This document shows positions 30,738-56,563 of a stretch of DNA of 64,000 nt, in pieces (within the stretch, counting starts at the first letter, position 1; every line of letters starts with the position of its first letter). Both the position numbers and the translations under genes were made by a program. The stretch comes from Ignavibacteria bacterium. Its GTDB lineage: Bacteria > Bacteroidota > Ignavibacteria > Kapaibacteriales > UBA2268. The notes under the pieces were generated by a model. The model ran no database searches. It was not told the origin of the DNA and saw nothing but the letters and a program-made list of their open reading frames with translations. Location of the stretch: the NCBI GenBank assembly GCA_012518115.1, contig JAAYTD010000013.1, positions 1-64,000 of the forward strand. Direction: 5' to 3'.

Positions 30738-30940
30738 TAATATCAAACTGAATTATATATTTAGTTCAATTATGTTTTAAAATTCCCCTTCCTAGAAGGG
30801 GTGGCAAGCGAAGCTTGACGGGTAGTCCACACCTTCCACGCTATCGCGGGTACTCCTCTCAAGAGGAGAATTAAACCAATTCAAGCAGGAGGAGAATTTG
30901 ACTACTACATTTGGGCAAATTGTTATTAAAAATGGTATAA
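30738..30940 (+). repeat. Composite repeat, complete copy
   Basis: Left end TAATATCAAACTGAATTATA, TTTAGTTCAATTATG; module A (AATTCCCCTTCCTAGAAGGG then GCGAAGCTTGACGGG); module B (CCACACCTTCCACGCTATCG then CTCCTCTCAAGAGGAG); right end with GACTACTACATTTGGGCAAA and ATTAAAAATGGTATAA. The right end stops 7 bases before the ATG of the next gene, so the element may provide its promoter or leader. With the terminator, it fills the 30555-30947 gap. Confidence 0.8.
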
Positions 30941-54048: not shown

Positions 54049-54056
54049 TATATTTG
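54049..54056 (+). promoter_or_regulatory. -7 box five bases before the GWxTD ATG
   Basis: TATATTTG ends 5 bases before ATG 54062, as for the gene at 47737. Transcription would start near the ATG. Confidence 0.45.
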
Positions 54057-54061
54057 CATAT

Positions 54062-55654
54062 ATGAAACGCTTAATTTTATACCAAATTAAATTATATATT
54101 AGTTCAATACGTTTAAAATTCCCCTTTGGCACGAAGGGGTGGCAGGCAAAGCCTGACGGGGTAGTCGTTTCGACAGGCTCAACGACCAGGAACCACACCA
54201 CCCCCGCTTCGCGGGTACTCCTCTCAAGAGGAGAATTTAACAACTATATTTTGGATAAATTATTATTCAAAATAGCATTATTGCTGATTTTTACATTTAT
54301 TAGTTCCCGTGCTTATTCTGAATTGCACGTAGATGTTGATTACTCTATTTTTCATTATTCAAATGATTCTAATGTAGTAGAGCTATATTATTCTTATCCT
54401 GAAAGTAGCTATACTATGGATTTTTCTGATGGCATATATCGTGGTTCGCTTTTGTTCAATTTTACAGTTCAAAAAGAAACCTCTACACTATTAGATTCTT
54501 CGTGGTCTGCTCCATATAGCTATGAGAAATTTACTGAAGATTCTCAAGTTTTTTATGGTTTATCTCGTTTCGTTTTGCCTTCAGGTAAATATAAATTCCG
54601 CTTTACTGTCGTTGATTCAAATTCTTCATCACGAGTTTTCCGTACCTCTGGCTCTTTTACTGCCCCTGTTTCACCTGACAGTTCTTTTTTTATTAGCGGC
54701 TTACAGTTAGCAAATAAAATAGCAGATTCTTCTGATTCGTCACCTCACCCTTTATTGTTTTATAAGAATGGCTATTATGTATATCCTAATCCACTTCGTG
54801 AGATTTCAAGTTCAACTCCAATTTTATATTTATACAGTGAGATTTTAGGAGCTTCTCGCTTTTCACCTTCAGGTGTTCATTTACGCTATTTAATTCACGA
54901 TTCGCGTGAACATTTGCAGTATGAGCTCGAAAAAAGTTTGTCTTCAATAACGGACAACATTATAGATGCTGTTTCCATACCTTTAGATTCTTTAAGTAGC
55001 GGAGTATATTATATATCTTTACGTGTTTATAATTCCGCTCGTACAGATAGCACATCTTCACGCTTAAAGTTCTTTTTAATAAATCGCAATATTACTATAT
55101 CAACTTCGCGATTTTACACAGAAGATGAAATGTTTGAGATGAGTGAATTTTCTACTTATGATGAAGCAAAGGCTTTAGATGAATATTCTAAATTTTCTAT
55201 TATAGCTACTCCGTTAGAAAAGCGTTCTTGGGAGAAACTTAGTGATTTGAAAGCACGTCAGCGTTTTTTGTATCGTTTTTGGTTTGTTCGTAATCCAGAT
55301 CAGAAAAATCCTTATAATATAGAGCTACATAAATTTCGTGATAGGGTCAAGCATTCTAATATTTACTTTAGCTATGGCGGAAAAACTAATGGTTGGAGTA
55401 GCGATCGTGGAAAGGTTTACATTCGTTATGGCGAGCCTGTAGAACGCAATCGTCATTCAGCGACTATGGAAAAACGTGCTTATGAAACTTGGCATTATAC
55501 CGGTATAGATGGTGGCGGCGATTTCTATTTTGTTGATAGATATGGAATGGGTGATTATCGTCTTCTTCATTCTACAGCTAATGATTATATAAAGAATTAC
55601 AATTGGGAATCAGAACTCATAAGATTTACGAACACAAATATGAACGGTTATTAG
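54062..55654 (+). CDS. GWxTD-type secreted protein with a repeat in its signal-peptide region
   Basis: 530 residues. The C-terminal ~170 residues carry the GWxTD domain (FWFVRNPDQKNPYNIELHKF, GWSSDRGKVYIRYGEPVERN; the usual GWxTD Thr is Ser here). The middle has beta-sandwich-like sequence. The open frame starts at ATG 54062 (MKRLIL) and continues for 67 codons through a composite repeat (YQIKLY ... LDKLLFKI), then reads ALLLIFTFISSRAYSELHVD. Without the 201 bp insert, MKRLI would join LLLIFTFISSRAYS to form a normal signal peptide. Either the repeat-borne extension is translated or a start at TTG 54252 (MDKLLFKIALLLIFTF) is used. The lipid acyltransferase gene follows in 6 bp. Confidence 0.75.
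   Translation: MKRLILYQIKLYISSIRLKFPFGTKGWQAKPDGVVVSTGSTTRNHTTPASRVLLSRGEFNNYILDKLLFKIALLLIFTFISSRAYSELHVDVDYSIFHYSNDSNVVELYYSYPESSYTMDFSDGIYRGSLLFNFTVQKETSTLLDSSWSAPYSYEKFTEDSQVFYGLSRFVLPSGKYKFRFTVVDSNSSSRVFRTSGSFTAPVSPDSSFFISGLQLANKIADSSDSSPHPLLFYKNGYYVYPNPLREISSSTPILYLYSEILGASRFSPSGVHLRYLIHDSREHLQYELEKSLSSITDNIIDAVSIPLDSLSSGVYYISLRVYNSARTDSTSSRLKFFLINRNITISTSRFYTEDEMFEMSEFSTYDEAKALDEYSKFSIIATPLEKRSWEKLSDLKARQRFLYRFWFVRNPDQKNPYNIELHKFRDRVKHSNIYFSYGGKTNGWSSDRGKVYIRYGEPVERNRHSATMEKRAYETWHYTGIDGGGDFYFVDRYGMGDYRLLHSTANDYIKNYNWESELIRFTNTNMNGY
54077..54280 (+). repeat. Composite repeat, complete copy inside the GWxTD reading frame
   Basis: TTATACCAAATTAAATTATA (left end), module A (AAATTCCCCTTTGGCACGAA, GCAGGCAAAGCCTGACGGGG), a GTTTCGACAGGCTCAACGAC spacer, module B (CCACACCACCCCCGCTTCGC, GGGTACTCCTCTCAAGAGGA) and right end ATTATTCAAAATAGCATTA. 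Flanked by TTA (54077-54079 and 54278-54280), a possible 2-3 bp target duplication; the repeat distance is 201 bp, a multiple of three. Confidence 0.85.
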
Positions 55655-55660
55655 TTTTTT

Positions 55661-56563
55661 ATGAAATCATTTTTTTCGCATTTATTAAAATACTTTTTCA
55701 TATCTTCAGGTTTTGTTATATCGAAATTGCCTACAAGTATATATTCTTTTTTTGCACGTTTATTAGGAAGTTTGTTTTATTATTTGTGGGGAAGTCGTCG
55801 TTCTGAAGCAGAACATAATTTGCGTTTAGCTTTTCCAGACAAGTCATTTCATGAAATCCGTCATTTAGCAAAAGCATCATTTTGCAATCTAGCTATTACT
55901 TTTTTCGAGTTGTTTTCTATGCCATATTATAGTGTAATAAAGTTAAAGCGTAAAATAGTTTATGAAAACTTATCTTTAGTATCTGAAGTTTATAGTCGTG
56001 GGCGTGGAATTATATTTTTATCAGGTCATTTTGGGAATTGGGAGCTCTTAGCTTATTCGGTCGGTATTTTTACTAATTTGCCTGTTACTATAATAGTTAA
56101 GCCACAGCGTAATACTTATATAGATTCTGTTATAAATTATTTTCGCACATCAGCGGGTAATCGCATAGTTTCTATGTATTCGGCGGCACGGACAATAGTT
56201 TCTACTCTTAGCAGTGGTGGAGTTATAGCGATGTTAGCAGACCAAGCAGCGACACAAGACAAAGATTTTTTTGTAGATTTTTTTTCGCGTCCAGCTTCTA
56301 CTCATAAAGCAGTAGCTAATATAGCATTACGCTTTAACACGCCTATTATTATGGGCTTTTCAGTTCGTCAATCTGATGGTAGCTACAAGGTAAAGTTAGA
56401 AGAATTAGATCATTCAGATTTGGCAAATAACTACAAAGATTCTTTTGTCTTAACACAACGTCATGTAAAAAAATTAGAAGAAACTATAAGAGCTCATCCT
56501 GATCATTGGAGTTGGATGCATCGCCGTTGGAAGCATACGCCGCCGTCGTCTCATTCTTCTTAG
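55661..56563 (+). CDS. LpxL/LpxM-type lipid A acyltransferase
   Basis: 300 residues with one N-terminal membrane helix. The acyltransferase signature is IIFLSGHFGNWELLAYS (HxxxxE). MLADQAATQDKDFFVDFFSR and NTPIIMGFSVRQ match the family, and the end is WSWMHRRWKHTPPS. Uses acyl-ACP to add a secondary chain to lipid A at the inner membrane. Six bp after the GWxTD gene, so probably one transcript. Followed by a good terminator. Confidence 0.9.
   Translation: MKSFFSHLLKYFFISSGFVISKLPTSIYSFFARLLGSLFYYLWGSRRSEAEHNLRLAFPDKSFHEIRHLAKASFCNLAITFFELFSMPYYSVIKLKRKIVYENLSLVSEVYSRGRGIIFLSGHFGNWELLAYSVGIFTNLPVTIIVKPQRNTYIDSVINYFRTSAGNRIVSMYSAARTIVSTLSSGGVIAMLADQAATQDKDFFVDFFSRPASTHKAVANIALRFNTPIIMGFSVRQSDGSYKVKLEELDHSDLANNYKDSFVLTQRHVKKLEETIRAHPDHWSWMHRRWKHTPPSSHSS

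What the first reader, a model, noticed from the sequence alone, without database searches (positions are those of the whole stretch)
54062..54330. Dispersed repeat inserted in frame in a signal-peptide region
A complete composite repeat copy lies within the first codons of the GWxTD gene. The two TTA flanks are exactly 201 bp apart and the frame has no stop, so 67 repeat-derived codons join MKRLIL to ALLLIFTFISSRAYSE. Removing it rebuilds a normal signal peptide. This is like the palindromic elements that enter coding sequence in Rickettsia. Either the protein has a 67-residue extension, or translation now starts at TTG 54252 using repeat bases.
Basis: partly seen in the sequence, partly recalled or inferred. 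Interest (0 to 1): 0.72.

Follow-up and report, generated by a model that had tools for sequence, protein, structure and literature searches.

The report
Mobile repeat splits a signal peptide
A 198-base, non-coding mobile element has jumped into the first codons of a secreted-protein gene of an uncultured Bacteroidota bacterium without breaking its reading frame, in a stretch that is normally cut off the finished protein; it is a clear but isolated case of a known phenomenon.

Summary
A 198-bp repeat (54080-54277), flanked by TTA at 54077-54079 and 54278-54280, lies between codons 6 and 7 of the GWxTD gene (54062-55654). The insertion is 201 bp long and leaves the frame open.

The repeat is a MITE-like element specific to this species among the genomes searched. 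Its ends are TACCAWWTTGAATWAT, and it makes a 3-bp TWA target-site duplication. Of 21 complete copies with TWA on both sides, 19 have identical flanks. Excising the window copy gives MKRLILLLIFTFISSRAYSE, a normal signal peptide. Its start lies 40 codons from a conserved Glu, and relatives cluster at 38-44.

The Rickettsia comparison holds only in outcome. This is the only one of the complete copies I inspected that lies inside an ORF, and no other copy is open in this frame. The usual left end would have put a stop at codon 19; this copy lacks it because of private indels.

Best reading: the element is translated from ATG 54062 as an over-long N-region and removed with the signal peptide, so the mature protein is unchanged. 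Starting at TTG 54251 (not 54252), inside the element, is a close rival. No RNA or protein data exist to decide between them, and no empty-site strain was found.

The parts
54049..54056 (+). TAnnTTTG promoter-like motif (TATATTTG) ending 5 nt before the ATG; possible leaderless start
   Evidence: Motif enriched upstream of genes here (52 vs 17 for the reversed control). This instance alone is weak evidence.
54062..55654 (+). GWxTD-domain gene, 530-aa ORF including 67 insertion-derived codons
   Evidence: PF20094, E 3.1e-8
54062..54079 (+). Original first six codons, MKRLIL
   Evidence: Excision restores MKRLILLLIFTFISSRAYSE; start-to-anchor distance 40 codons, homologues mostly 38-44
54077..54079 (+). 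Left target-site duplication, TTA
54080..54277 (+). MITE-like composite element, 198 bp
   Evidence: Ends and TSD shared with other complete copies; 51 DNA hits in the genome
54080..54095 (+). Left terminal inverted repeat TACCAAATTAAATTAT (1 mismatch to consensus)
54112..54166 (+). GC-rich inner module 1 (AAATTCCCC...GACGGGGTAGTC), also found alone in the genome
54167..54190 (+). Inner module 2, REP-like GTTTCGACAGGCTCAACGACC, optional in the family
54191..54239 (+). GC-rich inner module 3 (CCACACC...CTCAAGAGGAGAATTT)
54251..54253 (+). In-frame TTG inside the element; rival start giving MDKLLFKIALLLIFTFISSRAYSE
54262..54277 (-). Right terminal inverted repeat (ATTATTCAAAATAGCA, consensus ...AAATGGTA)
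54278..54280 (+). Right target-site duplication, TTA
54281..54319 (+). Rest of the original signal peptide (LLIFTFISSRAYS); probable cleavage near AYS|E (inferred)
   Evidence: Sequence and homologues; no signal-peptide predictor was available
55661..56563 (+). Downstream lipid A acyltransferase-like gene, 6 nt after the GWxTD stop, probably the same operon
   Evidence: PF03279; adjacent in 14 of 16 relatives' loci examined

Best explanation
A 198-bp non-autonomous transposon (MITE) inserted at a TTA site between codons 6 and 7 of the signal peptide of a secreted GWxTD protein and duplicated the TTA. This added exactly 67 codons. [Shown by sequence comparison: element, ends, TSD, open frame, ancestral signal peptide.] The ribosome most likely still starts at ATG 54062 and reads through the element, giving an extra-long, hydrophilic N-region in front of the intact hydrophobic core. 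[Inferred, about 55-60%.] Signal peptidase then removes the original and inserted N-terminal residues together, so the mature protein is the same as before. [Inferred from the position of the insert relative to the core and the AYS|E site.] The signal peptide is thus a place where a frame-preserving insertion costs little.
For: (1) Element and TSD: 19 of 21 copies with TWA on both sides have identical flanks; the ends are absent from the same-genus genome. (2) Ancestral start: the empty site gives MKRLILLLIFTFISSRAYSE, 40 codons to the anchor Glu; relatives cluster at 38-44, and 27 of 28 have no open frame long enough for 107. (3) Excision restores an ORF only here: 0 of 18 other TSD-matched copies have a spanning ORF of 80 aa or more. 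(4) Read-through: 0 of the other copies are open in this frame, and 3 of 114 placements are. The usual left junction, GATGTTTTAAAATTCC, would give a stop at codon 19. This copy has ACGTTTAAAATTCC, and that junction occurs nowhere else in the genome at up to 3 mismatches. (5) The family's frequent right-end ATG (AAAATGGTA) is ATAGCA here, so no ATG remains downstream in the element. (6) A promoter-like TATATTTG lies 5 nt before the ATG.
Against: A hydrophilic stretch of about 65 residues before the hydrophobic core is unusual for a signal peptide. TTG 54251 gives a normal signal peptide of family-typical length (44 codons to the anchor). The site was noticed because it is open, so the openness statistic is inflated by selection. 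Whether the private deletions came before or after insertion is unknown. The context scores of the two starts do not separate them (16th and 9th percentile of gene starts). The transcript of the element folds strongly (-62 kcal/mol, z -3.6), which could hinder initiation or elongation.
Confidence: 0.6

Rival explanations
1. The insertion is as described, but translation now starts at TTG 54251 inside the right arm of the element. The element has become 5' leader and has donated a new start codon and N-region (MDKLLFK) to the old hydrophobic core.
For: It gives MDKLLFKIALLLIFTFISSRAYSE, 44 codons to the anchor, within the relatives' range. A homologue (L042) has only a TTG start, also at 44. 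The hydrophobic core is as strong as in the empty site (2.86 vs 2.98).
Against: Its upstream context is poor (9th percentile) and the element's AGGAG lies too far upstream. It does not need the 63 codons upstream to be open, yet they are.
Confidence: 0.35
2. The gene is damaged: the insertion abolishes secretion or expression and the open frame is accidental.
For: Three of 114 placements would stay open by chance. A long hydrophilic N-region and strong hairpins could impair export or expression.
Against: The rest of the 457-codon frame is intact, its GWxTD domain passes the Pfam cut-off, and the downstream acyltransferase gene is intact. Both start options leave an intact hydrophobic core.
Confidence: 0.1
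3. A domesticated, Rickettsia-like protein-coding palindrome: the 66 residues stay in the mature protein and do something useful.
For: The frame is open and carries private changes that remove stops.
Against: The insert lies before the hydrophobic core and the probable cleavage site, so it should be removed. No other copy of the family lies in a gene.
Confidence: 0.04
4. Assembly artefact: the repeat was wrongly joined into this locus in a fragmented assembly.
For: The genome is in 92 contigs and the repeat is multi-copy, a known source of mis-joins.
Against: The junctions are exact TSDs and the element is clearly different from every other copy found (best 89%), so a collapsed or misplaced copy is unlikely. 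Both flanks belong to one gene that excision restores exactly.
Confidence: 0.03

Closest known systems
Rickettsia palindromic elements (RPE)
   Same: Palindromic repeat of about 150-200 bp inserted in frame in a gene, with an open frame through it (PMC10969869).
   Different: RPEs enter genes in nearly half the cases and share a conserved peptide frame. Here one copy among those inspected does, with no shared open frame. This element has TIRs and a 3-bp TSD.
Prokaryotic IS5-type MITEs, e.g. BrickBuilt and other MITEs of Porphyromonas gingivalis
   Same: Short, multi-copy, non-coding, with TIRs, in Bacteroidota; BrickBuilt is composite and always intergenic (PMC4596501).
   Different: Different TIR sequence, a regular TWA TSD, and one copy inside a gene. 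No parent IS was found here.
Tourist-type MITEs of the PIF/Harbinger superfamily (mPing)
   Same: 3-bp TTA/TAA target-site duplication (PMC2836001).
   Different: Eukaryotic. Only the TSD is shared; no related transposase was detected here (PF13359: none in the genome).
REP-like palindromes
   Same: The GC-rich inner modules form hairpins and also occur outside the MITE ends.
   Different: They sit inside a larger element with its own ends and TSD. No tie to a RAYT transposase was tested.

Membership tests
[quoted passage not shown]
   TACCAWWTTGAATWAT at both ends in inverted order, 93 hits genome-wide with the TWA against 1 control
[quoted passage not shown]
   19 of 21 TWA-flanked copies have identical 3-bp flanks
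[quoted passage not shown]
   Median 198 bp; TSD-matched copies 105-431 bp; no long ORF spans any other copy
[quoted passage not shown]
   The only DDE_Tnp_1 gene (L107 2509-3993) has different ends, CCCTAACTCCG; no PF13359 or PF13586. A parent outside this genome, lost, or of another transposase family is not excluded.
IS5 / PIF-Harbinger-derived element | 3-bp TWA target-site duplication | tested here: met
IS5 / PIF-Harbinger-derived element | Cognate IS5-type or Harbinger transposase | tested here: not met
   Not found with PF13359, PF13586 or PF01609
Rickettsia palindromic elements | Frequent insertion in coding sequence | tested here: not met
   Only the window copy is spanned by an ORF of 80 aa or more among 39 candidate copies
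Rickettsia palindromic elements | Shared open frame encoding a conserved peptide | tested here: not met
   No other copy is open in the same frame
Rickettsia palindromic elements | In-frame insertion tolerated at protein level | not testable with these tools
   Needs proteomics or ribosome profiling

The most novel reading that the evidence does not exclude
After insertion, selection actively opened the frame: the 2-bp loss and other private changes in the left arm removed a stop, so a MITE was turned into a long, translated and then discarded signal-peptide extension. Signal peptides would then be a general safe harbour where mobile elements can settle inside genes.
Probability: 0.2. Interest if true: 0.55.

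Novelty: new member of a known kind. Interest (0 to 1): 0.36.

Why it matters
In-frame insertion of small mobile repeats into bacterial genes is best known from Rickettsia. This is a clean case in another phylum: the element, its target duplication and the ancestral site can all be read. It also suggests a simple reason why such an insertion survives, because the inserted residues sit in the part of the protein that is cut off. It warns annotators that the N-terminus of this protein cannot be taken from the longest ORF.

Tried and rejected
- Empty site at DNA level: the only same-genus genome (L038/L139, goat omasum MAG) has a different gene upstream, so no alignable empty site.
- Parent transposon: PF01609 gave one gene with different ends; PF13359 and PF13586 gave none.
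- TA dinucleotide TSD (IS630 type): rejected because the matched flanks are TTA/TTA and TAA/TAA.
- Start-site scoring: both starts score low among gene starts, not decisive (one search used the TTG coordinate one base off, corrected).
- Rfam: only a chance match far below the gathering score.
- Paper search for MITE insertion in bacterial signal peptides: no matching paper seen among the 12 listed.

Full report
Observation. The sequence at 54062-54330 is as described. ATG 54062 opens a 530-codon frame that ends at 55654. Its C-terminal part matches the GWxTD domain (PF20094, E 3.1e-8). TTA occurs at 54077-54079 and 54278-54280. Between them lies a 198-bp repeat that encodes YQIKLYISSIRLKFPFGTKGWQAKPDGVVVSTGSTTRNHTTPASRVLLSRGEFNNYILDKLLFKIA without a stop. 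The in-frame TTG is at 54251, not 54252.

The repeat. The genome (2.48 Mb, 92 contigs, 97% complete) gives 51 DNA matches to the region. The best other copy is 89% identical over 162 bp. Reading the copies with flanks shows defined ends, TACCAWWTTGAATWAT in inverted orientation, usually with a TWA triplet outside. With the TWA included and one mismatch allowed, the pattern occurs 93 times in this genome, against 1 for the reversed control. It is absent from the same-genus genome and at background level (0-3) in 22 other genomes of the family. Of 39 candidate end-pairs, 21 have TWA on both sides, and in 19 of these the two triplets are identical. If the triplet were part of the inverted repeat, one side would be TTA and the other TAA. 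The identity therefore marks a target-site duplication (P about 1e-4). Between the ends lie GC-rich modules that also occur without the ends, so the element is composite.

Class of element. Short length, inverted ends, TSD, many copies and no transposase gene make it a MITE. A TTA/TAA duplication is what PIF/Harbinger Tourist MITEs make (PMC2836001); from general knowledge, some IS5-family elements do likewise. No matching transposase was found. The single DDE_Tnp_1 gene belongs to an IS with different ends (CCCTAACTCCG...) that sits next to a copy of the repeat end. The IS5/Harbinger assignment is therefore only a lead.

What was there before. Removing the element and one TTA gives MKRLILLLIFTFISSRAYSELHVDVDYSIF, a textbook signal peptide. 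In 28 homologues from the same family and order I measured the distance from possible starts to the conserved Glu of ELYYSYPE. Plausible starts cluster at 38-44 codons. The empty site gives 40, the TTG start 44 and the present ATG 107. In 27 of 28 homologues the open frame does not reach 107 codons. The original start was therefore almost certainly ATG 54062. No alignable empty site exists in the data: the same-genus relative has another gene upstream.

How unusual. Among the complete copies inspected, only this one is spanned by an ORF of 80 aa or more, both as it stands and after excision. No other copy is open in the same frame. Taking 19 other copies in both orientations and three phases, 3 of 114 placements would be open and in frame. 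The usual left junction of the family, TTCAATGATGTTTTAAAATTCCCC, would give a stop 13 codons into the element, codon 19 of the gene. This copy reads TTCAATACGTTTAAAATTCCCC, which avoids the stop and puts the next module into its one open frame. That junction is unique in the genome at up to 3 mismatches. Whether the change came before or after insertion cannot be told.

How it probably works. Two starts are possible. ATG 54062 would give a pre-protein with 67 extra residues before the hydrophobic core. TTG 54251 would give MDKLLFKIALLLIFTFISSRAYSE, with the element as leader and donor of the N-region. For ATG: the unbroken frame, the private removal of the stop, the loss of the ATG that many copies carry at their right end (AAAATGGTA, here AAAATAGCA), and a promoter-like TATATTTG 5 nt upstream. 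For TTG: its normal length, and a homologue with only a TTG start (L042). Start-context scores do not decide. Under both, the insert lies before the hydrophobic core and the probable cleavage site AYS|E, so the mature protein should be unchanged. This is the likely reason the insertion persists. It is inference; no signal-peptide predictor or expression data were available.

Comparison with known systems. The outcome resembles Rickettsia palindromic elements. Those elements enter genes in nearly half of the cases and share a conserved readable frame (PMC10969869); both features were tested here and not met. In Bacteroidota, the composite MITE BrickBuilt of Porphyromonas gingivalis is always intergenic (PMC4596501), as all other inspected copies of this family are. 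The case is a new member of a known kind: an in-frame MITE insertion, notable for where it landed.

Noticed in passing
54062-56563 and relatives' loci L032-L058: The GWxTD gene and a lipid A acyltransferase-like gene (PF03279) are neighbours in 14 of 16 relatives' loci examined, a conserved pair that hints at an envelope role for the GWxTD protein.
   Followed up: partly
30741-30937: A second complete copy of the MITE in the window, intergenic, with TAA target-site duplication.
   Followed up: partly
L107 2380-3998: An IS with a 494-aa DDE transposase and ends CCCTAACTCCG lies directly next to a copy of the MITE end.
   Followed up: no
L047 upstream of the GWxTD homologue: Another family member (G022) has a different repeat-like open stretch (FEKGGRGDFF, SPPLKKGVGG) in frame upstream of its GWxTD gene; probably a chance-open repeat before the real start.
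   Followed up: no
window and loci, 200 bp upstream of genes: TAnnTTTG, the Bacteroidota promoter motif, is enriched upstream of genes (52 vs 17 for the reversed control), with a small group ending 1-7 nt before the first ATG, either leaderless or with mis-called starts.
   Followed up: partly
L002, L014, L021, L025: An alternative left module, GTTTTTATTGTCTGAACTRTGATTTATATGATTTT..AGATGTT, replaces the usual left arm in some copies, so the family is a mosaic.
   Followed up: no
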